Source: Tulasnella sp. 424
Taxonomy: Eukaryota; Basidiomycota; Agaricomycetes; Cantharellales; Tulasnellaceae
Direction: 5' to 3'
Length of the DNA stretch: 64,000 bases
Assembly: GCA_019633425.1 (NCBI GenBank)
Contig: WSUB01000059.1
Location: 124,001 to 188,000 of the forward strand
Shown here: positions 2,172 through 62,739 of the stretch, piece by piece
How positions within the stretch are numbered: position 1 is the first letter of the stretch
How the letters are laid out: every line of letters starts with the position of its first letter
The notes under the pieces: generated by a model
The model's input: only the letters and a program-made list of their open reading frames with translations
Databases searched by the model: none
Told to the model about the DNA's origin: nothing
Position numbers and translations under genes: made by a program

Positions 2172-4663
2172 ATGCAAAAAGACGATAATCGAGATGCCGG
2201 GCCCTCAGCGTTGCCTGGCTCACCAGATCACGATACCTCCTCCAATGCATTCCCGCCGAGCTCTAAGCTGGTACGCTCTTCCCGAGTGTCAAGGACAATT
2301 TCTATGGCTTACCAAAACTACTTTTCCGATTCCTCATAGAGGGATAAACTCAATAAGCTTGCGAATCGGCGGCTCGATCTCTCCTCCATCGAATTTGTCG
2401 AGGACGCCCGCGAGGTCCGAGGAGGTTATGCAACAGTTTCACGAGCCGTTTTGGTCTCTCCCTCCAGTGGTCGAGACGGAGCGAGCCAATCCAATTCGAC
2501 AAAAAAGGCCGGCCTCGACTTATTTGGTCCTCCTGTAGAAGCGTCTCAGCGGCGGAAGGTCGGTGCTACTCTGCCTTTCCGGCCACTGACGCGATGAGTG
2601 GCTCATCGGTTCAACTTTACAGCTTGTAGCAGTCAAGAAAATGAACATGTCAGATGACTCAACGCGGGTATTAGGGGTAAGAAGACTCTGGCCAATCACG
2701 TAGTGATGTCTGAGTTGAGGTCTTTCGGTTCAGTTGACTCTCAGGGAAGCCGAATTCCTGGTTGGACTTTCTCACAAAAATATCATTAAACTTGAAGGAT
2801 TCGTTGAAGACCTGTCCAAGGATGTAGTGTGGCTGGTCTTTCCCTGGGCGGAGAACGGAAATTTGAAGGACTTTATCGCGTCAGAGGAATGGGAAATCCC
2901 GGAACGAATCTCGCTGGTACGATCGAACTATCTTTTCTTCGACCTACCTCTGACACTCTGCATTCCAGATTGCCGACGTGGCTAGAGGAGTCGAATACCT
3001 CCATAGCCGACAACCCCCAATACGCCACGGCGACCTCAAATCTGTACGTTCTGAGAGCATCATATCGAGCTACATGCAAACATCGCTCTGATTTTTCAGA
3101 TAAACATATTGGTCAACTCCGAGTACCGCGCGGTAATCACCGACTTTGGATCAGCTCGCCGTCAAACTACCGAGGATCGAGACGAGGAAACAAGTCATGC
3201 CGAAAACAAACCTCAATCAGCCCTGTCGCTTGAACCAACGTTCTGCGGTGCGACCAATACCATGACCTTAACTTTGAAGGGAGATCATTTCACTCTTCGT
3301 TGGGCTGCTCCGGAGCTGTTGCACAAAAAGAAAGCTACCCTTGCGAGCGATATCTGGGCATTGGGATGTGTAGTGTACGAGGTAAGGTTCAGATCCTATC
3401 TTATTATCACTATCGAGTTTCAAATATGAGCTCCGGAATAGGTGATGACAAACTCGATTCCGTTTCAAGATGTCGACGTGGACACCGCCGTCATGATACG
3501 GGTCGTTATGGGAAATCTCCCATCCATCACGAATGACGCTCGCATGGCATTGATCAAGGTGATGTGTTCCCTTGTACTTGCCTGCTGGAGTATGGACCCC
3601 CGGAAACGACCGACTGCTGAGAATTGTCAAAAGTGGATCAATTGGATGGTGTGTAACACTTATTTCCAGTCAATTACATACAATTGACCAAAACTTGATA
3701 TAGCCTATAACTCAGCCAAACCCGATACGAACTGCAGACTCAGCGGCCTCTAGAGCTCGCTCTCCAACGCTTCTGATGCAACTGGGACATATGTACAGAC
3801 AGCAGTGTGACTACGGGAATGCGTCAGATTTCTACACCAAGGCTCTGGATAGCTACAGAGAAATCGGCGACAGCAAGGGGAAGGCAGCGGCGCTGGGGAA
3901 GCTGGCACAGGTGCATAAGTTTCGAGATGAGTACAGTCAGGCCGCTACACTCTACTCCGAAGCCCTCCAAATCCAGACCGACATCGGCGACAGGCCAGGG
4001 AGAGCCTCCACTCTTTCTGGTCTCGCTGATGTGCATCGGCTTCAAAACGAGCACAGCCAGGCCGTTGGGTTCTACTCCGAGGTCCTCCAAATATACACTG
4101 ACATCGGCGACAGGCAAGGGAGAGCCACCGCTCTTTCTGGTCTCGCTGAGGTGCATCGGCTTCAACACGAGTACAGCCAGGCCGTCGCATTCTACACCGA
4201 GGCCCTCCAAATCCGCACCGACATCGGCGACAGGAAAGGGAGAGCCAACGCTCTTTGGGGTCTCGCTGACGTACATCGGCTTCGAAACGAGTACAGCCAA
4301 GCCGTGACATTCTACTCGGAGGACCTCCAAATCCGCACTGACATCGGAGACAGGCAAGGGAGAGCCGACGCTCTTTGGGGTCTCGCTGAGGTGCATCGGC
4401 TTCAAAAAGAGTACAACCAAGCAGCTCAGCTTTTCTCCGAAGCTCTACAAATTCAAATCGATGTTGGCGACCGAGACGGAAGAGCCTGGACTCTGATGTG
4501 CCTTGCCCAAGTCCATCGCGACCAGGACCAGCTCGAGGATGCAACACGCCTCTATGAACAGGCTGCCGGAATCTTTGGAGAAATCGGAAATACCCGGGAT
4601 GCAGGGACGGCATTACACCGCGCCGCTAGGGCTCGTCAACTCGAACCAACAAAGACTGAATAA
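2172..4663 (+). CDS. Kinase-TPR protein A (TKL-like kinase with C-terminal TPR array)
   Basis: Eight exons: 2172-2270, 2340-2558, 2623-2676, 2734-2916, 2969-3043, 3100-3381, 3442-3648 and 3716-4663. Every exon length is a multiple of three, so all introns are phase 0. The protein is 688 aa. The kinase domain (about residues 45-370) shows the VAVKK lysine, the catalytic loop HGDLKS, DFGSAR, an APE motif (WAAPELL) and the late DIWALG helix, so the catalytic residues are all present. The C-terminal exon encodes about seven TPR units with a 40-residue period, each opening with a GD-[RK]-x-GRA motif. Four successive units are nearly identical in DNA. Paralogues B and C (21.3-27.3 kb) and D (60.4-62.7 kb) share the exon plan. 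Plant BSK proteins have the same kinase-then-TPR order. The role is unknown; signalling or non-self recognition is inference. Confidence 0.88.
3916..4440 (+). repeat. 120-bp tandem repeats coding for TPR units
   Basis: The sequence repeats with an exact 120-bp (40-codon) period. The blocks starting at 3961, 4081, 4201 and 4321 line up base for base, each containing CATCGG-GACAGG followed by GGGAGAGCC, and they differ at only some positions per 60 bases. Paralogues B and C keep the 40-residue period, but their units have diverged from one another, so the homogeneity is specific to gene A. Confidence 0.9.
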
Positions 4664-21343: not shown

Positions 21344-23914
21344 ATGTCGAACCCAATACTGGGGCCGAACGGGCTTGTCAAATGCCCCAGCAATCAGGAT
21401 TTACAAACCCCAAAGGCAGAATCATTAGAGCAAAGGCTCGAAGGCCTTGAATTGAACGTGCCACAATCAACGCCACAATCCCAAGAGCCCAAGCCCACAA
21501 AACTCTCTGCGGTATGTGAAGATAGAGACTCGGTGCTCTGACTTCAACCTTATCGATCACTTTTTTTTTTTTTTGCTTCAGCGAGATATTCTCGAGGGGC
21601 TATCTAGCAAACGCTTAGACATTAACCAAATCAGATTCGCCGGGGATACCTCAATAGCCAAGGGAGGTCACGGCGACGTCATGATAGCGAACCTGGTTCC
21701 GAAAGATGGCCGACCACTGGAACTGGGAAGAAAGGTGGCCGTCAAGAAGCTTCAAGTGAGCGATCGTATGATCGACGAGGACAAGACTCTTCGCGTAAGA
21801 GGTTTCGCACAATGACGCGGTAGAAATGCTCAGACGGTGGCCGTTTTAGGGGTTCGTCAACGAGCTCCGTGTAGTGGACGGGCTATCTCATCCCAACGTC
21901 GTGAAAATTATCGGATTTGTGGAGGACGTTAAAAAGCGCATCGTCTGGCTAGTTTTCCCTTGGGAAGCTAACGGCAATGTTCGTGAATTCCTCCTTTCCG
22001 GCAAGTGGGAGCTCCCCGAACGGGTGTCGTTGGTGAGTTACGAAACACCTCGAATCGGATCAGACGTAAATTCTTATCGGGAGTCCGTCAGATCAAGGAC
22101 GTGGCGTCCGGGCTTGAGTATCTTCATACTCGTCAGCCACCCATCTGTCACGGAGACCTCAAATCTGTGAGTATTCTAGCCAGCTATCTCACTCGTTGCT
22201 TACTAACGAGCTGTTGCTCAGCTCAACATCCTTGTCAATTCCGATCATCGAGCCGTCATCACAGACTTTGGCTCCTCACGCGTCTTGAGGAAGGCTCGTG
22301 AACTGGGCGCGGAACCAGCAACTAAACAAATGGTCTCGGAGGATCGGGGCGGAGCGAAATATGACCAACATCCAGAGGTTACCCTGTCTGCCTCGGGTGC
22401 TGAGCTGACGCTGACGGGGCCAAGCTGGTCTTTTCGGTGGGCGGCCCCGGAAGTTTTAAATGAAGAGCAGCCAATTTTGGCTAGCGATATATGGGCGCTT
22501 GGTTGGATCGCCTGGGAGGTGAGTATCCGGGTTGTTATCCAATCCAACGTTTCGTTCACCGCTTAATCTGCCCACCCTTCCCGCCTTAGGTTGTCACGGA
22601 TAATTACCCCTTTCCAGAAGTGATTACTCGCCAACATATCACAATCAAGGTTATCACGGGATCACTCCCTTCAATCTACAAAGATGGCCAACTCTCACAA
22701 ATCCACCATCTCTGCCATGTGATGGCGATGTGTTGGAAGCTCGAGCCGAATGACCGTCCATCTGCTGCTGAATGCCGGGGTTCGCTCACATGGATTGTAA
22801 GTTGTGTATCACAATAAGCAGACACAGATTTCAATCTAATTTGAAACAGCCGTCCCTTATCCCGGTGGAGAGGGGTCCTGATAATACCAAGCTTAGGTCC
22901 AGTGCCTTGTTAATCCAGACTGGACAAATCCATCGTCTTCAAAACAGAAACGAGGAAGCTTTGAAGATGTTTGAGGAAGGGTTGGCCATCGCTCGTTCCG
23001 CGGGAGATAAACCAGCCGCCGCGAGCGCTCTGTACTACAGCGGATGCGCCTACTTGACGCAATCCAACTACACGAAGGCGGAAGAGTGTCTCAGCAAAGC
23101 GTTGGAGATGTACGTGAGCAGTGGTGACGAAAGGAGACGAGCCGACACACTGTGTGTACTTGGAAGCATCCACGCCGAGCGATCGAAATACACCGAAGCG
23201 GAGGAATATTTCAACCAGGCACTGGTAATTTCGAAATGCATCGATGACGACTTGGGTAAAGGGACGTCACTGCGTGGGCTTGGCAGGGTCCACCGAGTAT
23301 GGGCCCGATACGCTGAAGCAAAGGAATGTTTGAATCAAGCGCTGTCCATCTTCACAAGCTTGAAGGACGATCTCCGCCGGGCGAGCTCACTGCATGACCT
23401 CGGTATGGTCTATCAAGCACAAGAAAGCTACAATGAAGCGGACGACGCTTACAGACAAGCGTTGACCATCGGCACGAGCATTGGGAACGCCTTGGGCCAA
23501 GCGAATGCGTTATTACGGCTCGGAACAGTCCGGGGATTGCAATCCAACTATGCCGAGGCGGAAGAACTGTGCGAACATGCATTGGATATATACAAGCGCA
23601 TTGGAAATGGCTTGGGTCGAGCGAACGCGTCGCTGGAGCTGGGGGAAATCCTACTACGTCAGGGTCGGCATCTTGACGCAAAGTATTTGTTCGACGACGC
23701 AGCCAAAATCTCAGACCCAATAAACTACGATTTCGGCAAGCGTCACTCAAGACACCTTCTCGCCCAGGTCCTTGCAGGGGAGAAATTGTCTACAGCCTTC
23801 TCTTCCCCATCCCCATCCCCGTTACCTTTACCCGCTCGTAACACCACAGAGATACCCACAGCACCTCCGACCTTTCCATCCACTAGTTCATCAGATAGAA
23901 ATGTATCTCCGTAG
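21344..23914 (+). CDS. Kinase-TPR protein B
   Basis: Seven exons: 21344-21511, 21582-21794, 21850-22032, 22092-22166, 22222-22518, 22590-22796 and 22850-23914. All are multiples of three (phase-0 introns), giving 735 aa. An N-terminal linker of about 56 residues is rich in Pro, Gln and Glu. The kinase domain has a glycine loop (KGGHGDV), VAVKKL, the catalytic loop CHGDLKS, ITDFGSSR, WAAPEVL and DIWALGWIAWEV, so it should be catalytically competent. The last exon encodes about seven 40-residue TPR units and a Ser/Pro/Thr-rich tail. The exon lengths 183, 75 and 207 bp equal those of genes A and C. Gene C is its tandem duplicate about 3.2 kb downstream. The units are not homogenised as in A. Confidence 0.88.
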
Positions 23915-24546: not shown

Positions 24547-25638
24547 ATGTCGAACCCAATAATGGAGCCGAAAGGGCTTATCGAACGGCCAAGCAATCTG
24601 GAGTTACAAAACGCAAAGGCAGAGTCATTAGAGCAAAGGCTCGAAGCCCTTGACTTGGACGGACCACAGTCAACACCGCAGTCTCAAGAGCCTAGGACCA
24701 CAAAACTCTCTGCGGTATGTTAAGATGGAGACTTGGGACCTTCGGTTCAAGCTTACCGATCACTCTGCTTCAGCGAGATATTCTCGAGGGGCTAGCTAGC
24801 AAACGATTAGAAATCACCCAAATCAGATTCATCGGGGACAACTCAATAGCTAAGGGAGGTCATGGCGACGTCATGGTAGCAAACCTGGTTTTGGAAGATG
24901 GTAGTCCGCTGGAACTGGAGAGAAAAGTGGCGGTTAAGAAGTTTCAAGTGAATGATAGTACCGACGAGGACAAATTTCTTCGTGTAAGACGCCTCGCTCA
25001 ACGATGCAGTAGAGATAGCTCAAGTAGCCTTCTAGGGTTTTGTCAACGAGCTCCATGTGGTGAACGGGCTATCCCATCTCAACATTGTGAAAATCATCGG
25101 ATTTGTGGAGGACGTTAAAAAGCGCATTGCCTGGCTAGTCTTTCCTTGGGAAGCTAACGGCAATGTTCGTGAATTCCTCCTTTTTGGCACGTGGGAGCTC
25201 GCCGAACGGGTGTCATTGGTGAGTCATGGATTGAGATAAATCGGATGAGACGTAAATGTTTATCGGGAGTCCGTCAGATTAAGGACGTGGCGTCCGGCTT
25301 GAGTATCTTCATACTCGTCAGCCACCCATCTGTCACGGAGACCTCAAATCTGTGAGTCTTCTCGTCTCATGAGCTACCTCACTTTCTACTGACTCAACGA
25401 GCTGTTATTCAGCTAAACATTCTTGTCAATTCTGATCATCGAGCCGTCATTACAGATTTTGGCTCCTCGCGAGTTTTGAGGAAGGTTCGTGAACTGGGCG
25501 CAGAACCAGCCACAGGTCAAACGTTGTTGAAGAACCGAGACAGAGGGAAATATGACCAGCGTCCAGAGGTTACTCTGTCAGCTTCTGGTACTGAGCTGAC
25601 GCTGACGGGGCCAAGCTGGTCCTTTCGGTGGGCAGCAC

Positions 25639-25892
25639 CGGAAGTTTTAAATGAAGAGCAGCCAATTTTGGCTAGCGATATATGGGCGCTTGGTTGGATC
25701 GCCTGGGAGGTGAGTNNNNNNNNNNNNNNNNNNNNNNNNNNNNNNNNNNNNNNNNNNNNNNNNNNNNNNNNNNNNNNNNNNNNNNNNNNNNNNNNNNNNN
25801 NNNNNNNNNNNNNNNCGGAAGTTTTAAATGAAGAGCAGCCAATTTTGGCTAGCGATATATGGGCGCTTGGTTGGATCGCCTGGGAGGTGAGT
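25639..25892 (+). repeat. 77-bp identical flanks around an N gap
   Basis: The 77 bases 25639-25715 are identical to 25816-25892 and abut the two sides of the N run. Both copies are the end of kinase exon 5 plus its donor site. Identical contig ends joined by an arbitrary gap point to an unmerged overlap, not a biological repeat. Confidence 0.85.
25716..25815. other. Assembly gap (100 N)
   Basis: Exactly 100 unknown bases, the conventional size for a gap of unknown length. It falls in intron 5 of gene C. Confidence 0.98.
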
Positions 25893-27275
25893 GTCGAGTG
25901 GCTATACAATCTAACGTTTCGTTCACCGCTTGATACGCCCACCCGTCCTGCCTTAAGTTGTCACGGATAATTATCCCTTTCCCGAAGTAACTACTCGCCA
26001 ACATATTACAATCAAGGTTATCACGGGATCACTCCCTTCGATCTATAAAGACGGCCAACTCTCACAAATCCACCGCCTCTGCCATGTGATGGCGATGTGT
26101 TGGAAGCTCGAGCCGAAAGAGCGTCCGTCTGCCACTGAATGCCGGGGCTCGCTCACATGGATTGTAAGTTGTGTATCACAAGAAGCAGACACGGATCTCA
26201 AGTTAGTTTGCCACAGCCCTCCCTTATACCGGTGGCGAGGGGTCCAGATAATTCCAAGGTTAGGTCCAGTGCCCTGTTAATTCAAACCGGGGAAATCCAT
26301 CGGATTCAAAACAAAAACGAGGAAGCTTTGAAGATGTATGAGGAGGCGTTGGCCATCGCTCGTTCCGCAGGAGAGAAACAAGCCGCCGCGAGGGCTCTGC
26401 ACTGCAGCGGAAGCGCCTATAGGACGCAGTCTAACTACGCGAAGGCCGGGGAATGTCTCAGCGAAGCGTTGGGGATCTACGTGAGCATTGGTGACAAAAG
26501 GGGACGAGCCGACGCACTGCATGAACTCGGGCTCATGTACACCGCGCGATCGGAATACACCGAAGCAGAGGAACATCACAGCCAGGCATTAGCAATCTCC
26601 AAAAGCATCGATTACGACTTGGGTCAAGCGAACTCATTGTATGGGCTTGGCAGGGTCAACCGAGCACGAGCCCGATATGCTGAAGCAAAGGAATGTTATA
26701 ATCAAGCGCTGGCCAGCTTCATAAGCGCGAAGACCGACTTGGGCCGGGCAGCCTCATTGCTTGGACTCGGCGAAGTCCAGGTAGCACTAGCCAACTACGA
26801 TGAAGCGGAGGAAGTTTACGCACAAGCACTTACCATCTACACCAGCATTGGGGTCGCCCTGGGCCAGGCAAATGCATTACTTCGGCTTGCAGCAGTTCGG
26901 GGATCGCAATCCAAGTATACTGAAGCGGAAGAAACGTACAGGAAAGCATTGGATACATACACGCGCATTGGGAATGCCTTAGGCCGAGCAATCGCGTCGC
27001 TGGAGCTGGGGGGAATCTTACTAAGTCAGGGTCGGCATCCTGAGGCAAAGTCTTTATTCGACGACGCAGCCAAAATCTCAGACCAAATAAATTACAATTT
27101 TGGCAAGCAACGCTCAAAACACCTTCTCGCCCAGGTCCTTGCAGGGGAGAAATTGTCTACGGCCTTCTCGTCCCTATCCCCAGCATCTTCATCCAACCAA
27201 AACACCAAGGACATACCCGCAGCGCATCCAACGCTCCCATCCACTACGTCATCGGATAAATCTTTACTGCCATAG

Positions 27276-47240: not shown

Positions 47241-48607
47241 TCAGAGCTTGGCCTTCAGCTGCCCTTCCTCTCCTTCCCAGAGCGAGAGTATCAATCCTCT
47301 ATCTGGTCCAACAGAGCCCCTCAGCGTTTCCTTGAAAGTCCCTAGCACCTTCTTCTTCCCCTGAGATGTCTCCAACTTCACCCAATCCGCTGCATCCTTC
47401 ATTATCCAACCCCAGCCTTCCTTCCTCAATGTCGCGATGTCTGTCACGGGGGTAGTTGAGCGGACAAGCGCAAACCATTCTGGCATAAAGAACATCTCCA
47501 TTTTAGACGCAGGATCGTTCTCCGCCGTTTTTTTGATGCTTGACGTGGCGTCGTTGACGTGGGACATGCCAAGTGTGACGCCGAAGGACATGGAAGGACC
47601 GAGGTACGAGATAATTTCAGCGTTGAGTTCGGGGTTGCCTGCCACGTCGACATAACAGTACGGTCCCGCGGTAACATCCACTTCGGAAAGAGCGCCGTAA
47701 AGATGAACTTCGTCGTATAACCCCAAGCTCTCCACGAAGGCTTTGTTGCCTTTAGACGTCAATCCGAGAACCTGGAGCTCTAGGCCCGGTGTATTTTCAA
47801 TCCGCTTCTTGATGGCGAGTGCTAGAGAGAAGCCAGTCTTGGACGAAGCTGACGAGATCAGGATCCGCTTGGCGTTTCGGTAGTGTGCAGAGTAGAGCCA
47901 GTCTTCGGCCCAGAAGCTTGTCCAGAAGAGCGGAGTGTACAGCATAGATGCGTCTTCTTCGTCTTCTTTGTATAGTGGATCGGCTTTGCAGCGGGTGATT
48001 TGGTTGTATGGACGGCGGTCGGCGGGAAGATGGGGCCGGAGGGCGTAGAAGTTGTGACTGTTGACGTCGTTTTCGTCAACCCGGATCATCATGTACTTGG
48101 CAGAGGGGAAATATCCACTGCGAAAATAAATACTGTCAACACCACGCTGTGAATGGAAAGGGTAAATGTCCGACGTACAAGACCCGTTCGTCAACCTTTA
48201 TTTTTTCGATATTCGATTCCACGACGGTTCCGAACCCCCAAACAGGAATCACGCCGTGAGTTTTCGGAGATGTGTTTCGTGTTTTTGGTGCTGGGTGAAA
48301 GTCAAAGTATCTAAAAAAACACATCACCGTCAAGACGTGGCCGTGCCAGGGTCTTGCAGATATGTACCTACTTGAAATGCGAGTCCTCCCCCAGAATCCC
48401 ATACGTTATATTATTTGCACTCCAACCGAACTTTTCAATCTAGTAAAGCGATCAGATGTGGGCTACTCGATTTAGATGTAAGTTACGCCACCTTGACCAA
48501 GACATGTTGAGGTGGCACGGTTTCGATTACACTGTCCACTATCACTGCTTTGCCTAGTTTTTTCGGTCCTCCCCTTGGTACGCAGAGTGTTGAGTTGTAA
48601 TATGGCA
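47241..48607 (-). CDS. DUF2855-family protein
   Basis: The minus-strand start at 48607 (MPYYNSTLCVPRGGPKKLG) with exon 1 to about 48487 is followed by short exons including YFDFHPAPKT and GVIPVWGFGTVVESN, and the long exon 48123-47241 with GYFPSAKYMMI, MLYTPLFWTSFWAEDWL, ILISSASSKTGFSLALAI, CYVDVAGNPELNAEI and GWGWIMKDAADWVKLE. These are hallmarks of DUF2855 (PF11017), proteins distantly like the medium-chain dehydrogenase/reductase fold but of unknown reaction. SSASSKTG sits where a nucleotide-binding loop would be. Not linked to any cluster here. Confidence 0.85.
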
Positions 48608-49229: not shown

Positions 49230-52200
49230 TCAACCTTCGGGCTCAAGGGCCGTCTCACGCCTGCTAACGATCTCTTCCCCAAGCTGTAACATTACAACGA
49301 GTAAGCTATCCAAGTCAAGTCAATGTATGAAGTTGTATTTCATACCATTCGGACGACTTCTCTGATTGTTGGTCGGACTAAGGGCGCTGCCCAGCACTTT
49401 CTCAAGATGTCCCATATAGGGTCAGAAGGGGGCAGCTTTGGATGAGCGGATGGCTCAGGGGACGACCCCGCAGAAATGACTAAGAAAGCCTTTCCAGCTT
49501 TGAGCTTGTAGAATGGGGGCTTTCCGCTCATGACCTAATGTCACAACTTAGGATACCAATTGGAAATACGATTATCTGGGCGTGAAAGACCCACCTCAAG
49601 TACAACACATCCAAATGCGTATACGTCACTTGGGAGATCTTGGACTCCATCTCGAATAAGTTCCGGCGCCTGATAACCCTTTGACCCTTGACCCACGAAT
49701 GAGGTTTGAAGCTCAGGGTTCAGCTGCTCTAAAAACTGAGAAAGGCCGAAGTCGCATAGTCGGGCACAGTTGCTGTCGTCTATGAGAATATTCGATGGCT
49801 TAATGTCGCCATGAGAGATTGGCGGGGAGTGTTCGTGTAAGTACTGTAGCCCCTTTCCGGCCTGCACTAGCTGCAGGGAGGGTTTAGATCTAGTCCGCCG
49901 ATTCGCAGCCTGTCGCTCACCAGTTCCAGTTTGTCTACAACCACAAGCAGAGGGTGTGCCTCCAGGTAGTCCATTAGAGTGCCATTGTTGCACCAGGGGG
50001 AGATTAAGCATGGCTGTTCACCGGAACGGAATCCATACAGCTCAAGAATATAAGGGGAGTGCAGTCCTCGCCAGATGAGCACCTCACGATCTACCCGCTT
50101 TACAACGGCGTTAATTGAATTGCGGTGTCTATATTGAAAGAGAATCGTCGTACCTTGTTCATACGGGCGACCGCTTCTTGATTTCCATGGCTTGTCTGCA
50201 TGGCAACCGTACGAAGGTACTTGATTGCCACGGTAATAGTTTGGCCATCCGGTCGGGTCCATCTACCTTTAACAACGTCGGCAAATCCCCCGTGCACCGT
50301 CTTCTCGTGCGGAGGATCCGTTTCATGAATTAGCTCTCCAGGAAGTTCAGTAACTACATCCAACTCCGTATCTGACAACCCGGTTTCACCGTCAACCGCA
50401 TTTGCGATGTTTACGGATGGCTATGGTATTCCTTTTGAATTTAGTTCGTACTGTCGCAGCAGGAGCCTCCGCACAGGAAACGAATGCTCACACTTGGTGA
50501 AAAGGAAATAATGGATTGCACATCCTCCTTTGCCTGACGACCAAGCTGTTCCAACAAAGAAGCCTCGTGGGTGAGATCTCTACCTCGCTTTTCTCGCCGA
50601 TTGTGCACATACCATGCCAACAACTTCATTAATGGAAGGGCGTTCCTTGGGATCAAATGTCCAGCACATGTTCATCAATTCCCATAAAGGATCCGTGTCG
50701 GGTAGATTGGGGTGATCAGATGGGACCGGAACAGCCCCTCCCATAATAGCCAGGAAAAATCTGCCACGACTACCACGACCAAAAATCCGGTGATGAGGAA
50801 GAAGACCACTCATAACCTGCATTGATGGTGTCAGTCCATAAAAAGAGGTTATCTGATATCAAGAGTTACCGCGAGCGTTGTCCCACCGAAGGAATAAATA
50901 TCCACCGGCAGAGGAGCCAAAAGCTCACTATCTGACATGAGAAGTTCAGGAGCCGTATATCCACTTGTCTTGCTCCATTGAGCTCCACTGGTACTGATTC
51001 CAGTGGACTCTTCTTCGACCACTTTCGACAAGTTAAAATCGCTGATCACCGCCTCGCCGGGATCATTTATGAGAATATTTTCAGGGCAAATATTTCCATG
51101 AGAGATCGTTGGGAAGAGTGTGTGCAGGTGCCGTAGCCCTAATGAGGCCTGGTGGAGCTGGGGTAGCAGGGAAGAGCGACTGCATTAGGACTCAATTCAT
51201 GAATGCAGATCAAGGAGGTAGTATCATACCAAGACTATTTTGTCAATACGTTGCATTTCGGGGTGCTGCGCCAGGTACATGGTTATGTTTCCGTTGCGAC
51301 ACCATGGAAGAACGATGCAAGGCTCTTTTCCAAGACGACACCCCAAAAAAGCAAGAACGTTACGATGCCTGACCGATGCCCAAGCTTTGGATTGACGCAG
51401 AAGGCTCTATGCAGACCGATGACGAGTTAACAGCCTAATTCCCAGCAGAGTAAGGGTAGATGAACAAACTTACGGCCCCCCGCTTCTCATTGGCGCCTTC
51501 ATCTCCTCCGAATGCAAGTGGACGAAGAACTTTGATTGCGACGTCATGTGTCTGCCCATCCGGACTAACCCATCTACCCTTGTACAGATCGACCAACCAA
51601 CCAAAAGTAGGCCTTGGCTCCCTGATCAGCTCTCCCTGCAGCTCATCAGCATCAGCGAGGCGAATAGACCCCGCTCCGGTTGAAGCCTCGGATGAGCATT
51701 CGACGAGGCCATCCTGTCCTGTCGCGGAGTTTCCCTCATATTCGACCGGCAGATCGAGATCAGAACCCTTGGGATGGACAGGCACCGCCTCGGAAGTGGG
51801 GGGGTGAAGTGGAACTTCGTTGGGTGGGAGCTCCTGCCCCTCTCGTGTGGTCAGGCCCACCTCGATCCTATCCTGAGGCTTTGACGGAGCCAATGAACAT
51901 GTATCTGCAATAGAAAGAGATTCTGTTCGACTGGTGGACTCCGACAGCACTTCCCTGACTTGGTTTTCTGATTCGATTTCGGTTTCGCCTTGTTCCTTTG
52001 GAGCACTCCCTCGCTCGGTCTTAGCAGGTATAGCGTCCGCCAAACAGGGTAGACCTTCTCCCCAAGAACCTAGACTATGTCTATGTCCTCTCCGGAGCTC
52101 ATTGTGCAGCTCACTGCCTAAGGACGCATGAAGGGTGTCGTCCAACCCAGCGGCAGTCACTTCAGGCGTGCTTGCATGTGTGGACCTCAAGCCGGGCTCT

Positions 52201-52430
52201 TCCGTATTTCGCACCAACTGAGTAATGGACGCGTTATGTGGAGTTTGGTCACCGCCCTCGACTGATTTGAAAGGTTGACGATCGGGCGCTGGGTTGTTAG
52301 CTGCAGTGTCCGGTGCGGGCGCTTTCGCTTCCTTCCCGATCTCTACAACTGAATGCTGGATCACTGGGTTTCTAGAGCGCTCGCGAGTGTTCAGCCAAGG
52401 GATGTGGTTACAGAGGCCACAAAGAGTCAT
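49230..52430 (-). CDS. Tandem pseudokinase-kinase protein (JAK-like order)
   Basis: Ten exons on the minus strand: 52430-51474, 51406-51230, 51157-50870, 50816-50613, 50545-50492, 50420-50154, 50097-49921, 49870-49595, 49534-49346 and 49283-49230. All are multiples of three; total 880 aa. Residues 1 to about 275 are low-complexity, Glu/Ser/Pro-rich, with an opening CGLCNHIPWL. The first kinase domain keeps the VAIKVL lysine but has HGNICPEN in place of H-x-D-x-K-x-x-N, and DFN in place of DFG, so it should be a pseudokinase. The second keeps VAIK, HGDIKPSN, DFGLS and APEL, so it should be active. Both modules start with a GELI motif and contain an L-K-GRW-PDGQT block, and they share exon lengths (177 and 54 bp), showing internal duplication. 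The 71-bp intron joining the modules (50491-50421) has GTGAGC…ATAG ends and keeps phase 0; the second module has no ATG of its own near its start. Two separate genes remain possible. Confidence 0.78.
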
Positions 52431-53686
52431 GGTAGGTCGGTGTGGTGGTGGTGGTTGAGGAACAATTCACCAGCGCTTATTTGTGGTGGACTTGTCCAGA
52501 CCGCCACACACCGAATGCAATCGGCATGTCACGGTTGGATGGACGTGTAGGGTTCATAGTCGCGACTAGAGGATCCAGTCTTGACCCGCAAAGTATGTAT
52601 GCTGTCGCACGTAGTTGAGAGCTGACAAGAGAATTCCTCACGCACGCCGTTCCTCCCCGAAACGAAGTATCCTCGCTTAAGCTGATGGCATATATATTCT
52701 ACTCGAAGAGATTGCAACGAGTGGCAAGTTGTTACATGGATTGGAGCATGTTTCTCCAGTAGTAAATTCAATGATACGATTGTACCAAAAGCCTGTCTAT
52801 TAAGCCAGGAAACAAAGCCTAACGGTCGCAATTTAGCCAGTTCATTCGAGGTACATGTCATCGCTTGGCTCCTTTCCTCTTTTTCGGGCTCGACCTGGAC
52901 TAAGAACAGTCTCCCAGGGGCAGACTAAATACAGCTTATGTGGGGTAGGGTAGGTTCGTTAGACTAGGAATGGCTTGTCGACGTTGCCGCGATCCTCGGC
53001 TGCGGTTGCGAAGAAGGCGCCAGACCCCTCCTTCCGATAAACTAGAGAATCTGATGCAGAACCGGAGTATGAAGTGAATGTTAGGACATATGTGAGTTCA
53101 GAACCTACCCTTGGGAAATGTGAAGTCAAGGCTTCAATTACGTGATTGTCATCCGCGGTCGTCGATTGGAACTGTCGATCGGAACTCGGCGATCGTAATC
53201 GGAGATCGTGACACAAACGGCACGCCATAAGAGAATCCTTTCTCACCTAAATGATAGATTCCCTCGCTTAATTCGGTGGTATTCGTAGTTACGTGTCGAT
53301 GTTGATGGTGTGTGGATATAATCGGAACGAAATTGCAGGTCGAATATTGAATAATCGCAAAAGGGGGATAGGTAAGCCACGAGGCGCCCGTGTTTGCCGA
53401 GGGGTGGATGGGGTTCCCTTCATAGCAACGATCCATCAGAACCGAATGAGATTCTCAAAATGTGCTCCAAAAGCTTCTCCGTGATGGTGGTAAGCGGATA
53501 CCTGCTGTGCACCAATCCTGCCGGACTGACCCTCCAACGCCCGCCTTTCCTTCCCTGGGAGCTGAAGCGTGCATTCTCAGTGAATTATTCCAGGCAGACG
53601 AAAATATGGCAGGAGCCAAGCCCGTTTATTCAGCAATGAAACAAAACCCGACGATTGTAATTTGGCCAGCTCTGTAGAGGTATGTA
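52431..53686. repeat. Downstream duplicate of the EMC7 terminal exon and 3' flank
   Basis: The segment of about 52775-53125 matches about 53610-53892 in the same orientation, with a spacer between them. The copied part covers EMC7's last intron end, last exon and 3' flank. On the minus strand both copies keep the terminal codons for SPKKRKGAKR and a stop, with synonymous third-position differences. The downstream copy has a premature stop and an insertion before that tail, and its acceptor AG has become GG. The remainder (52431-52775 and 53126-53610) shows no gene; the left part is the promoter side of the tandem-kinase gene. Confidence 0.75.
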
Positions 53687-54870
53687 TCATCGTTTGGCTC
53701 CTTTCCGTTTTTTGGGGCTCGATGCGGGCTGGGAATGGCTCGAAGACGTTGCCGCAATCCTCGGATTCGGCTGCGAAGAAGGCGCAGGACCCCGTCCTTC
53801 TGATAAGCCAGATAACCTAACGCCGAACCAGAGTATGAAGTACATATCAGGAATATGTGACTTCAGAACTTACCCTTGGGAAAGCTGTGCGGGCATGGAC
53901 ATCATCCTGCTTTGCTGAGCAAGGAAGTCTTCTCTGTCCTTGGGATCCATATTGGCCTGCAGTTCAAGTTTCAGCAGAGCGGTTCGATTCTTCCGGAGAG
54001 CAAAGTTACTTACGATGATTTTTGGCATGAAAAACATCATCGCCACAGACCCGAGCATGACGAGCATGAGGGGGTTGCTCCGGAACATGTCGATCGGGTT
54101 GAAGTCTTTCTTCGGTTCAACATATATTTTGACGCTTCGAGGCTTCAGCACGATGGGATACGACAATTGAGGCAGCGAATGACTCGGGTAATGAGGTGTG
54201 CCCAAAGGAAGAGGGTAGACGCGGATATGGAAGTTGGGGTCGGAGATGGTTGCCGCAAGAGGAGCCAACGGTCCAGGTGTCACCGAGGGTGCTGCAGTTG
54301 TAACTCCACTAGCTGTTTGCGGAGTGCCTGCCTTTTCCTCAGGTTTCTCTTTGGGGATGACGTCCACTCTGAGCTGGTAGAGATTTTTATTACCGTCAAT
54401 GGCCCAGCTCAATACGGTGTCCAGGTGCTAACCCACTACTCACCTGATCAAATACATGATCCCTCGCAAGAACATTAAGGACGTATGATCCGGGTTCTAC
54501 GTCCCTCCTGGATTAGTTCGTCAGATGAGGGCTAGCGACAGGTGGTGTGCGTGTCAGCACTCACAAAACGAAACGACCATCCCGCCAAACATGAGCGGTA
54601 TACGTTCCCCAGTCGAGAGTCACTCGTGTTGGTTTCAGTGACTTTATATCTGCATGAGCACTTGGATGATCAGAGAATTGCCTTCATGAGCGACGACTTG
54701 CTGTGCAGACCTGGGCACACTTTGTTGAATTCTACGCTTCCGTGGACATCGACAGCTGATACTACTGCAGTTAAGAGGCTACATGATAGCGCACAGTTAT
54801 ACAAACAGCATTCTTTGGAGGACTGTCTAACAACCTACAGGACAAGGAGTGTTGTGAGACCGCGCATTGC
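53687..54870 (-). CDS. EMC7: ER membrane protein complex subunit 7 (EMC7)
   Basis: EMC7 is a lumenal/membrane subunit of the EMC insertase. On the minus strand, a probable first exon near 54866 gives MRGLTTLLVL (signal peptide start; junction not resolved). Further exons give VDVHGSVEFNKVCPD, KSLKPTRVTLDWGTYTAHVW and DVEPGSYVLNVLARDHVFDQ, the carbohydrate-binding-like beta-sandwich. The large exon from 54412 has SVKIYVEPKKDFNPIDMF, then the membrane segment PLMLVMLGSVAMMFFMPKII, then, after an intron at 53957-54013, ANMDPKDREDFLAQQSRMM. The C-terminal exon is Ser/Pro-rich and ends in KKRKGAKR. Compared with the duplicate downstream, this copy has one extra base in the GACGGGG run, which puts the tail out of frame with the preceding exon. 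A homopolymer error or a lesion is possible. Confidence 0.85.
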
Positions 54871-60434: not shown

Positions 60435-62739
60435 CTAGCTACAGAGACCCCTGGTCCTCTGTCTCTCATCTCGTACTGCGGCATCCCGGCAGGCAAGAGC
60501 TCGTTTCTCGCTCTCTTCCTGCCCGAGCATCCTGTAAAGCTCCACGGCCTCTTCGAAACGCTCTCTTGCTCTGGCGTAGCGTCCATGGTTGGCATGTACC
60601 AGTCCTAGGCCAAGTAACGCGTGGGCTCGGCTGAGCTTGCAGCCCAACCGCTTACTGATTTTCAGCTCTTCCTTGAAGGCTGCCATGGCCTTGCTGACCT
60701 TGCCCTGAGCGCCGAAAATCAGCCCAAGTCCGTCAACCGAGATTGCCCTTCCCCTCTCATCTCTCAACTCTGTGTACTTGTGCAGCGCTAGCTCGAAATG
60801 TTCCTGCGCTCGGGTGTAAGGCGGTAGGTCCCGGAGGCGATAGGTTGCAGCAAGCCCGAAAAGAGCATCCGCTTGAAGTGAAGGGATGCTGCAGCGACAA
60901 CCCCCTTCCAACGCCGCATTGAGGTGTTTTTCGGCCTCGTCGAAACGACCTTGCAATCTTCTGAGATCTCCAAGCGCGAGGTTCCCGTAGGCCATCCCAA
61001 CGGCCGAGGAAGTATTTGAATAGATGACTAGAGCCTCATTGTAGAAGCTTTCGGCCTCCTCGTACCGAGAGGCATGCCGAGAAGCGTCGCCTCGATGGAT
61101 CAAAACCCCTGCAACCAGGGGGAGATCCTCCGTGCGGCGGGCCACGCTTAGAGACTCCTCCAAACGGCATATGGCGTCTTCCTGCTGGGCTTGAAAGAAG
61201 GACAAACGCCCGAGCTGCCATAAGAGCTCAGCAGAGCGGACTTTTGACTCATCGACGCTTCCTGGAGAAGGCTGCGTTGAAGGCTACCAGTGTGACGCGC
61301 CTAAATTAGTCGCAAGACTTGTGCCGCGGGACCCGCTCGATTGGCTTACAATCCATTGCAGCTTCTCCAGAAAAGCTGCGGCGGACGGTCGTTGAAGAGG
61401 TTTGAGATTCCAACAATCATTTACCAGAGCGCACAGGTAAGCAACCTGTGTGATAACTGGACGTTGTCTTGTAGTCTGGGAAGGTTTCCGGTCATCACAT
61501 TCAATATAATGGCCCCTTCGGATCTGACTTCTGGAAAGGGATAGTCCCCGGTCATAATCTATAGGGAAATTGGAAAACGACGTAAGAACCGACACGGAGC
61601 TCTCAAGTGGGGGGATATTACATACCTCCCAACATATCCATCCCAGCGACCACACATCGCTGGATAAATCCGGCTCTTTCCCGTCGAGAAGTTCCGGAGC
61701 GGCCCAGTTAAGCGTCCACTTCGGCCCAGTCAGAATGAGATGACCATCAAAATGATCCACGACGATTAATTGGCCTTCAGGTAAGTTGGCGATTGCTGCC
61801 GGAGGCTCGGTAGATTTGGGGTCTTGCCCGTCGACTCTCATTTTAGCTCGAGCAGAGCCAAAATCCGCGATGACTGCTCGACATGAAGAGGTCACGAGGA
61901 TGTTGAGCTACGGTTTGTTTGGCATATCAGCGATGGATTCTTGGGAGGTGGGGACGGAAGATAAGCCGTACCGTCTTCAGGTCACCGTGGCATATTGGTG
62001 GTTCCTGGTTGTGGAGATATTCAAGTCCGGCGGCAACATCTTGGATCTGAAATTGAAGCAGCTCCGGATGGTAAGAGAGGAGACTATCGCCAATGGTCGA
62101 CTTCTTGCTCACGAGGAAGACACGCTCCGGGAGGTCCCACTGGCCATTTCTGAGAAAGTCGCGAATATTCCCGTTTTCTTCCCAGTTGAAAACCATCCAG
62201 GCAATGCCCGCCTCAGCGTCTTCAACGAATCCAAGGAGCTTGACGATATTTGGGTGGCTAAGTCGACCAGTAATGTCGACCTCGCTCCTGAAAGACTGTA
62301 TCATGCCGGTTTAGTACTGCCGAAACGTCGTCTTAAGACTGGCGTACACTAAAAGCTCTGTCGTCAGAGTCCGCTATCCGCAGCATTTTCACAGCTACTG
62401 GGTGCTCAGAGTTGTGCCCACGGACAAGCGTGGCGCGTCGGACATCGGCAGTCCGTCCTGGCGAGTGAACATACGATTCCGTGAATCGAATGGCTGTGGA
62501 GTCCTAAATCCTCAAAGGCTCGGAGGGTAAGCCCGCCAGGCTTGTTCCTGGGGCCGCCGCCTGTCCAAAGGGACGATCACGGGATAAGCATCATCAAAGC
62601 TAGAATAAGGAGACCGCCCTACAGTAGATAGTATGCTTTCATTGGGCGCTTGAAGCGTTCTTACATTGGATATCGAGTCTGTCTCGTTATCTTGAGGAAT
62701 GCAGTGGGAATGGTTTGACCCGAGTTCTTCGCTCGACAT
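60435..62739 (-). pseudogene. Kinase-TPR gene D with a 2-bp frameshift
   Basis: Exons on the minus strand: 62739-62665, 62503-62348, 62295-62113, 62046-61972, 61907-61626, 61558-61350 and 61271-60435. The 183-, 75- and 282-bp exons equal those of gene A. Exon 6 is 209 bp instead of 207: in the stretch after CAGTTA a TCACACAG replaces the expected TCACAG, and the frame fails before the final kinase helix (LCALVNDCW). Kinase motifs are otherwise good: VAVKML, CHGDLKT, IADFGSAR, WAAPELL and DVWSLGWICWEV. The TPR exon (about six units; it ends in RQRTRGLCS) is open but more diverged from A to C than they are from each other. Sequence error, recent pseudogene, or a truncated kinase-only product are the alternatives. 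Confidence 0.75.

What the first reader, a model, noticed from the sequence alone, without database searches (positions are those of the whole stretch)
49230..52430. A fungal protein with JAK-like pseudokinase-kinase tandem architecture
Seen in sequence: two kinase modules can be spliced into one 880-codon frame with all-phase-0 introns. The first has HGN-I-C-P-E-N instead of H-x-D-x-K-x-x-N, and DFN instead of DFG. The second has HGD-I-K-P-S-N and DFG. The modules share the GELI opener, the PDGQT insertion and exon lengths of 177 and 54 bp, so one arose by duplicating the other and the first then lost catalytic residues. Known: in animal JAKs the JH2 pseudokinase regulates the JH1 kinase. Inference: a convergent regulatory pair in a fungus, with a long disordered N-terminus as a possible sensor or adaptor region.
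Basis: partly seen in the sequence, partly recalled or inferred. Interest (0 to 1): 0.88.

Follow-up and report, generated by a model that had tools for sequence, protein, structure and literature searches.

The report
Fungal pseudokinase fused to a kinase
A gene in the fungus Tulasnella is predicted to make one protein in which a kinase domain that lacks its catalytic residue sits in front of an intact kinase domain that it likely regulates, an arrangement like that of animal JAKs and wheat resistance kinases, and one that recurs in predicted proteins of other mushroom-forming fungi.

Summary
On the minus strand (52430-49230) ten exons with phase-0 introns give 880 codons carrying two kinase modules: module 1 with HGN, DFN and alphaC Glu-to-Gln, module 2 with HGD, DFG and the other catalytic residues. 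The genome is Tulasnella sp. 424; its deposited model agrees except at the C-terminus. Models of four other Tulasnella species are fused too. HGN is present in 4 of 4 readable first modules, this one included; module 2 keeps HGD/DFG in 4 of 4. AlphaFold2 gives two kinase folds after a disordered N-terminus.

Two points of interpretation change. The shared exon layout is family-wide, and trees tend to separate module 1 from module 2 (AU p 0.04 and 0.054), so internal duplication is not supported. JAK resemblance is architectural: no FERM or SH2, no shared pose. Plant tandem kinase-pseudokinases are as close. The pairing recurs: 19 of 35 scorable multi-kinase relatives have exactly one degenerate module, and this genome shows seven further adjacent pairs. 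Likely mechanism (inferred): cis regulation by a nucleotide-binding pseudokinase.

The parts
51642..52430 (-). N-terminal region, residues 1-263: predicted disordered, acidic; includes residues 99-122 (52136-52065), an apparent extra copy of the segment that precedes module 1 in sp. 408
   Evidence: pLDDT under 50 for 1-153 and 155-259; local score 81, best of 1000 shuffles 52
50492..51641 (-). Module 1, pseudokinase (residues 264-560, exons 1-5)
51576..51605 (-). Module 1 altered glycine loop FGWLVDLYKG
51522..51542 (-). Module 1 beta3 strand VAIKVLR, ATP-binding Lys retained
   Evidence: Lys kept in 5 of 5 species
51380..51403 (-). Module 1 alphaC LLRQSKAW, Glu replaced by Gln
   Evidence: same in sp. 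408, unreadable in the other 3 models
51077..51100 (-). Module 1 catalytic loop HGNICPEN, catalytic Asp replaced by Asn
   Evidence: HGN in 4 of 4 readable species
51026..51040 (-). Module 1 DFNLS in place of DFG
   Evidence: DFN/DFD/DFE/DFD in 4 species
50421..50491 (-). 71-nt intron joining the two modules in frame (predicted)
   Evidence: fused models in orthologues
49230..50345 (-). Module 2, intact kinase (residues 586-880, exons 6-10)
   Evidence: (PF07714 129.4 bits)
50265..50294 (-). Module 2 glycine loop HGGFADVVKG
50211..50231 (-). Module 2 VAIKYLR, beta3 Lys
50071..50091 (-). Module 2 alphaC DREVLIW, Glu retained
49790..49813 (-). Module 2 catalytic loop HGDIKPSN
   Evidence: identical in 4 of 4 readable species
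49736..49753 (-). Module 2 DFGLSQ
   Evidence: DFG in 4 of 4 readable species

Best explanation
The gene is predicted to encode one 880-residue protein with a likely disordered N-terminus, a pseudokinase module that lacks the catalytic aspartate and an intact TKL-like kinase module, in which the pseudokinase likely still binds nucleotide and would regulate the kinase in cis. Shown: the open frame and splice sites, the motifs, and their conservation in deposited orthologue models. Predicted: the fusion at the RNA level, both folds and the disorder. Inferred: module 1 keeps the beta3 Lys, the loop Asn and the DFx Asp, the residues that hold ATP and Mg, while losing the catalytic base, the alphaC Glu and the DFG Gly, so it would act as a nucleotide-dependent allosteric partner and not as an enzyme. 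Inferred: module 2 is a non-RD (HGD) kinase with a Ser/Thr-like loop, so control by a linked partner is more plausible than control by activation-loop phosphorylation alone. Whether the partner inhibits or activates is not known; inhibition released through the N-terminus is my first guess.
For: One frame through both modules, agreeing with the deposited model. Fused models in four other Tulasnella species. HGN in 4 of 4 and loss of the DFG Gly in 4 of 4 readable first modules, this gene included, with beta3 Lys 5 of 5, loop Asn and DFx Asp 4 of 4; module 2 HGD/DFG 4 of 4. The catalytic loop HGNICP[ES]N is nearly invariant although the HGN exon is only 55-63% identical to the orthologues. Both modules are modelled as kinase folds, 41 of 58 ten-residue blocks of residues 261-550 and 581-864 at pLDDT 85 or more. 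The pairing recurs: 19 of 35 scorable multi-kinase relatives have exactly one degenerate module and only 1 has no intact one; seven further adjacent pairs lie in this genome.
Against: No transcript, binding or activity data. Module 1 changes faster than module 2 (HGN exon 55-63% against HGD exon 79-89%), as a decaying domain also would. The relative pose of the domains is not defined (pTM 0.48), and the match to Janus kinase chains has rmsd 20.7-22.2 A. In the relatives the degenerate module has no fixed side (first in 7, last in 9, middle in 3 of 19), so no single JAK-like geometry can be general. The link between tandem state and catalytic loss is not significant once shared ancestry is handled. 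Orthologue models are gene predictions that skip exons.
Confidence: 0.55

Rival explanations
1. Decoy or sensor model, as proposed for plant tandem kinase-pseudokinases: module 1 would be a bait or docking surface for another protein, and binding there would release the linked kinase as the output.
For: Same architecture, kinase plus pseudokinase with no other conserved domain; module 1 changes faster than module 2, as a recognition surface might; tandems in the wider family do not share one origin on the trees.
Against: No partner, effector or phenotype known. The plant proteins are mostly built from receptor-like kinases, and these are not. The near-invariant pocket motif HGNICP[ES]N points to the pocket and not only to a surface.
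Confidence: 0.2
2. Passenger: a second kinase domain joined by fusion or duplication has lost its catalytic residues and is decaying without function.
For: Lower identity of module 1 between species; altered glycine loop; low confidence in its activation segment 427-440.
Against: The same change (HGN) is fixed in 4 of 4 readable species while Lys, loop Asn and DFx Asp are kept; frame and modelled fold are intact; plain decay would not be expected to spare the catalytic loop.
Confidence: 0.15
3. Module 1 is not dead: an atypical kinase or other transferase that works without the usual base.
For: ATP-binding residues retained; the review PMC10211241 (passages) reports pseudokinases with low or alternative activity.
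Against: Three features of catalysis are changed together (Asp to Asn, alphaC Glu to Gln, DFG Gly lost).
Confidence: 0.06
4. Two separate genes read as one by gene prediction.
For: No RNA evidence; orthologue models come from gene prediction and skip exons (P0002-P0004, P0121).
Against: No in-frame Met for module 2 before its beta3 Lys; only 71 nt between the coding parts, with GTGAGC and CATAG ends; fused models in five species, with ELPGEL before module 2 in 4 of 5.
Confidence: 0.04

Closest known systems
Plant tandem kinase-pseudokinases (TKPs: Yr15/WTK1, Rpg1, Pm24, Lr9)
   Same: Two kinase domains in one protein, one with lost catalytic residues and, in most, no other conserved domain; many origins, by duplication or by fusion (PMC6170490, passages).
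   Different: Described across plants and built mostly from receptor-like kinases; the Tulasnella pair groups with agaricomycete kinases, has the pseudokinase first and a long disordered N-terminus.
Janus kinases (JH2-JH1)
   Same: Pseudokinase before kinase in one chain; HGN in the first module (HGN in JAK JH2 is recalled, not tested here).
   Different: No FERM or SH2, Ser/Thr-like HGDIKPSN loop (rule recalled), no JAK-like domain pose in the model. I take the likeness as convergent; no tree with JAKs was built.
Expanded TKL kinases and pseudokinases of fungi
   Same: Both modules group with agaricomycete kinases, some deposited as 'TKL/TKL-ccin'; Laccaria bicolor has an exceptional number of TKL kinases (PMC2838846, passages), and TKL pseudokinases are said to be predominant in plants and fungi (PMC10211241, passages).
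   Different: The passages seen do not mention pseudokinase-kinase tandems in fungi; the linkage in cis is the new element.
FslK, the fungus-specific kinases closest to tyrosine kinases
   Same: Also expanded in Agaricomycetes (PMC3937382, passages).
   Different: Membership of either module was not tested; the passages do not mention tandem or pseudokinase members.
Two-kinase proteins of Phytophthora infestans
   Same: Two tandem kinase domains of one family in one protein, three proteins (PMC3019232, passages).
   Different: Oomycete; the passages do not describe a pseudokinase partner in them.

Membership tests
Janus kinase family | FERM and SH2-like domains before the kinase pair (PMC10180219, passages) | tested here: not met
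   Pfam scan at E 0.001 finds only kinase families; residues 1-259 modelled as disordered
Janus kinase family | Pseudokinase N-terminal to kinase in one chain | tested here: met
   (gene model, no transcript)
Janus kinase family | Second domain is a tyrosine kinase | tested here: inconclusive
   HGDIKPSN is Ser/Thr-like (rule recalled); solved-structure matches of module 2 start with an EGFR duplication construct (two stretches), then SymRK, IRAK4, Roco4, CTR1 (best 60 of 2578); single-kinase fold matches are mostly tyrosine kinases; specificity not assayed
Janus kinase family | Autoinhibitory JH2-JH1 pose | tested here: inconclusive
   7t6f_A and 8ewy_A rank 2 and 3 but with TM 0.27 by model length and rmsd 22.2 and 20.7 A; pTM of the model 0.48
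Plant tandem kinase-pseudokinase (TKP) | Kinase and pseudokinase in tandem with no other conserved domain | tested here: met
Plant tandem kinase-pseudokinase (TKP) | Domains derived from plant receptor-like or related plant kinases | tested here: not met
   Nearest relatives are Tulasnella and other agaricomycete kinases (best 120 of 1737); the one wheat protein in the list groups elsewhere
Pseudokinase (module 1) | Loss of one or more catalytic residues (beta3 Lys, HRD Asp, DFG Asp) | tested here: met
   HRD Asp is Asn in 4 of 4 readable species; Lys and DFG Asp retained
Pseudokinase (module 1) | No phosphotransfer activity | not testable with these tools
   needs purified protein
Agaricomycete TKL expansion | Kinase domains group with agaricomycete TKL kinases | tested here: inconclusive
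   Relatives include proteins deposited as 'TKL/TKL-ccin protein kinase' (P0041, P0043, P0083, P0098), but no reference TKL/TK tree was built
FslK (fungus-specific kinases near tyrosine kinases) | Kinase domain falls in the FslK clade | not tested
   no FslK reference sequences were used

The most novel reading that the evidence does not exclude
Mushroom-forming fungi are a third great lineage, beside animals (JAK) and plants (TKP), that builds signalling proteins by tethering a dead kinase to a live one: the catalytic Asp has been lost again and again in one member of a tandem, giving a standing toolkit of cis-regulated pseudokinase-kinase switches of which this Tulasnella gene is a conserved example.
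Probability: 0.45. Interest if true: 0.72.

Novelty: new variant of a known kind. Interest (0 to 1): 0.5.

Why it matters
If the pairing is a regulatory device, it would have evolved in fungi apart from JAKs and plant tandem kinases and many times over, so one can ask what makes a tethered pseudokinase useful and whether the pocket, the surface or the linker is what selection keeps. It would also give a function-level entry into the large kinase expansions of mushroom-forming and mycorrhizal fungi. Nine text searches of the open-access library aimed at such fungal proteins or at fungal pseudokinases and kinomes listed no paper on such fungal tandems; some listings were capped (20 of 60, 12 of 24), and subscription papers and preprints were not searched.

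Tried and rejected
Internal duplication from shared exon lengths: rejected as evidence. 177 nt occurs in 14 and 171-180 nt in 35 of 46 usable modules. One search printed 15 and 37 of 48; I dropped two rows whose reading was empty (L024 first, L056 first), and four more rows gave no exon (three without a fragment, one without sites). The script looks within 30 nt of the expected ends, so it favours such lengths; the breaks of the profile matches are the independent sign. Duplication itself is not excluded (AU p 0.04 and 0.054). In the first tree of 104 rows m1 and m2 fell in one 12-row clade (SH-aLRT 96) with their order unresolved. Rows left out for being long or near-identical: 16 of 72; 25 of 72, which also leaves out the other degenerate modules.

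Association of degeneration with tandem state: 21 of 76 modules in multi-kinase proteins against 3 of 77 single ones (HRD Asp, DFG Asp or beta3 Lys changed; Fisher p 4e-5); two of those three singles are Lys-column mismatches only. On a tree, 31 of 96 against 2 of 44 rows, but independent pairs gave median p 0.625, and 0.5 without own-genome rows, so not established. The list is biased, being the best 120 of 1737 matches to a pseudokinase-kinase query. Dropped before the count: the query, P0001-P0004, a fly and a wheat protein; 2 of 37 multi-kinase proteins had fewer than two scorable modules. Dropped: 15 near-identical rows and L002. The tandem status of some rows was set by hand.

Further orthologues: the third protein search, with the five-row alignment, listed none. 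The profile search of solved structures added only kinases. NCBIfam matches are all far below their cut-offs. A JAK-like pose was looked for and not found. No JAK is among the best 60 sequence matches of either module (of 1338 and 2578), nor in the VIA-align list, which one domain fills; this excludes nothing. Own-genome tandems other than this one have no resolved gene models (one search shows a possible in-frame Met before the second kinase in L024), so I call them adjacent pairs only.

Full report
What is there. The minus strand from 52430 to 49230 holds ten exons joined by nine GT-AG introns, all phase 0, giving 880 codons. Two kinase modules lie in this frame. Each is recognised alone by Pfam PF07714 (98.7 and 129.4 bits, cut-off 23.1), and they are 42% identical over 292 columns. 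The first has HGNICPEN and DFN and has Gln for the alphaC Glu; the second has HGDIKPSN, DFG, VAIK and DREV. The best protein match is the deposited hypothetical protein FRC04_009505 of Tulasnella sp. 424, identical over residues 1-863, which also names the genome; the species lies in Cantharellales, Agaricomycetes. The deposited model ends one codon into the last intron; mine adds 17 residues from a final 54-nt exon that includes the stop.

One protein or two. In the frame of module 2 the first Met after the acceptor at 50420 comes after the beta3 Lys. The coding parts are 71 nt apart. Deposited models of four other Tulasnella species (UAMH 9824 P0002, sp. 417 P0003, sp. 427 P0004, sp. 408 P0121) join parts of the same two modules in the same order. 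These are gene predictions that skip exons (P0002 lacks the HGN exon, P0121 most of the core of module 2), and there is no transcript, so the fusion is likely but not proven.

Is module 1 dead, and is it kept. HGN is found in 4 of 4 species where the loop can be read (424 itself, 417, 427, 408). The DFG glycine is replaced in 4 of 4 (N, D, E, D). The alphaC Gln is found in 2 of 2 readable. The beta3 Lys is kept in 5 of 5 and the DFx Asp and loop Asn in 4 of 4. Module 2 keeps HGD and DFG in 4 of 4 readable (424, UAMH 9824, 417, 427). Module 1 changes faster than module 2 (HGN exon 51/93, 60/95, 54/92 identical to sp. 417, 427, 408; HGD exon 77/92, 73/92, 82/92 to sp. 417, 427, UAMH 9824), but its catalytic loop is nearly invariant. 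I read this as a nucleotide-binding pseudokinase under selection; that reading is inferred.

What kind of kinase. By sequence, module 1 is best matched by RIPK3, then EGFR and Eph kinases, later BRAF; module 2 by an EGFR duplication construct scored over two stretches, then SymRK, IRAK4, Roco4, CTR1 (best 60 shown of 1338 and 2578). Single-kinase fold matches are mostly tyrosine kinases. I call the modules TKL-like; no reference tree was built, and membership of the fungus-specific FslK lineage (PMC3937382) was not tested.

Where the modules come from. Breaks of the profile matches near positions 64, 123 and 215 are common to the kinase family of this genome, and 35 of 46 usable modules have a candidate exon of 171-180 nt there (a search that favours such lengths). 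So the shared exon lengths do not show that one module was copied from the other. In careful trees the four module 1 rows and the four module 2 rows form two separate clades. Module 1 falls with degenerate modules of contig C129 (91/89, not firm) or, when the other degenerate rows are left out, beside a 12-row subfamily of kinases listed as single (98/89). Holding m1 and m2 together costs 21.7 and 18.9 log-likelihood units, AU p 0.04 and 0.054. In an earlier quick tree with fewer Tulasnella kinases the order was unresolved. By the criterion used for plant TKPs (PMC6170490, passages) this is nearer to a fusion type than a duplication type, but duplication is not excluded.

How common it is. Among the 120 listed relatives (of 1737), 35 multi-kinase proteins could be scored after leaving out the query, its orthologues, a fly and a wheat protein. 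Counting a module as degenerate if the HRD Asp, the DFG Asp or the beta3 Lys is changed, nineteen have exactly one degenerate module beside at least one intact one, 15 have none degenerate, 1 has two degenerate and no intact one; the degenerate module is first in 7, last in 9, in the middle in 3. By the same rule 3 of 77 single-kinase proteins are degenerate, one of them by the HRD Asp. On a quick tree of 140 modules from which the motif columns were removed, 33 lack the Asp, needing at least 22 changes on that tree (50 shuffles of labels 24-33). The test that allows for shared ancestry was not significant. In the window's own genome ten modules without the Asp were seen in the loci that I held. 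Eight lie 0.24-0.61 kb, between profile matches, from an intact module on the same strand, the degenerate one upstream in seven (this gene; C129 three times; C42, C412, C72; reversed on C335). Two have no neighbour in reach, L022 and L064. Gene models for these pairs are unresolved. A further protein of the same genome, P0005 (FRC04_003181), is deposited as one chain with an HGG module followed by two HxD modules.

What it likely does. The best reading is a cis switch: a nucleotide-binding pseudokinase tethered by a short linker (residues 556-581 under pLDDT 50) to a non-RD kinase, with input through the disordered N-terminus or through module 1 itself. The direction of control is unknown. The main rival is the decoy/sensor role proposed for plant TKPs. 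Decay is possible but fits the conserved loop poorly.

What is known. Two kinase surveys of fungi report a TKL expansion in Laccaria (PMC2838846, passages) and fungus-specific kinases close to tyrosine kinases (PMC3937382, passages). A review says TKL holds most pseudokinases, predominant in plants and fungi (PMC10211241, passages). JAK anatomy is from PMC10180219 (passages). Plant TKPs are from PMC6170490, PMC10260399 and PMC10951266 (passages); the first already compares TKPs with JAKs. Passages of PMC4082614 and PMC3591445 added nothing on tandems. None of the passages seen describes fungal pseudokinase-kinase tandems, and nine searches listed no such paper (some listings capped). Verdict: a real, conserved feature; a new variant of a known kind.

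Noticed in passing
window 52065-52136 (-): Residues 99-122 of the N-terminus repeat the segment that directly precedes module 1 in sp. 408 (local score 81; best of 1000 shuffles 52), so part of the 'sensor' region looks like a relic of a duplicated module start.
   Followed up: partly
window 2740-3633 (+), 21853-22775 (+), 25039-26142 (+), 61356-62470 (-): Four further kinase-like stretches in the same window by the profile built here.
   Followed up: no
window 52789-53118 and 53618-53883: A direct repeat about 0.77-0.83 kb apart (75-94% identical) lies between the tandem kinase gene and an EMC7-like gene at 53870-54427 (-) (EMC7 match 24.6 bits, just under the cut-off of 26.6).
   Followed up: partly
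window 47241-48197 (-): A DUF2855 gene (Pfam 197.8 bits) lies on the other side.
   Followed up: no
L044, L047, L056, L064 (contig C129) and L024 (contig C412): Degenerate modules of other genes share a catalytic loop HG[GRS]IHPTE (L044, L047, L056, L024; L064 reads HGG with Gln in place of the loop Asn), as if a dead active site were being conserved.
   Followed up: partly
P0012 (Tulasnella sp. JGI-2019a), P0027 (Tulasnella sp. 332): P0012 has the reverse order, intact kinase then HGN/DFR; P0027 is a single-kinase protein with HGN/DCG.
   Followed up: no
P0002, P0003, P0004, P0121: Deposited models of the orthologues skip kinase exons, so domain counts from deposited Tulasnella proteomes may be unreliable.
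   Followed up: no
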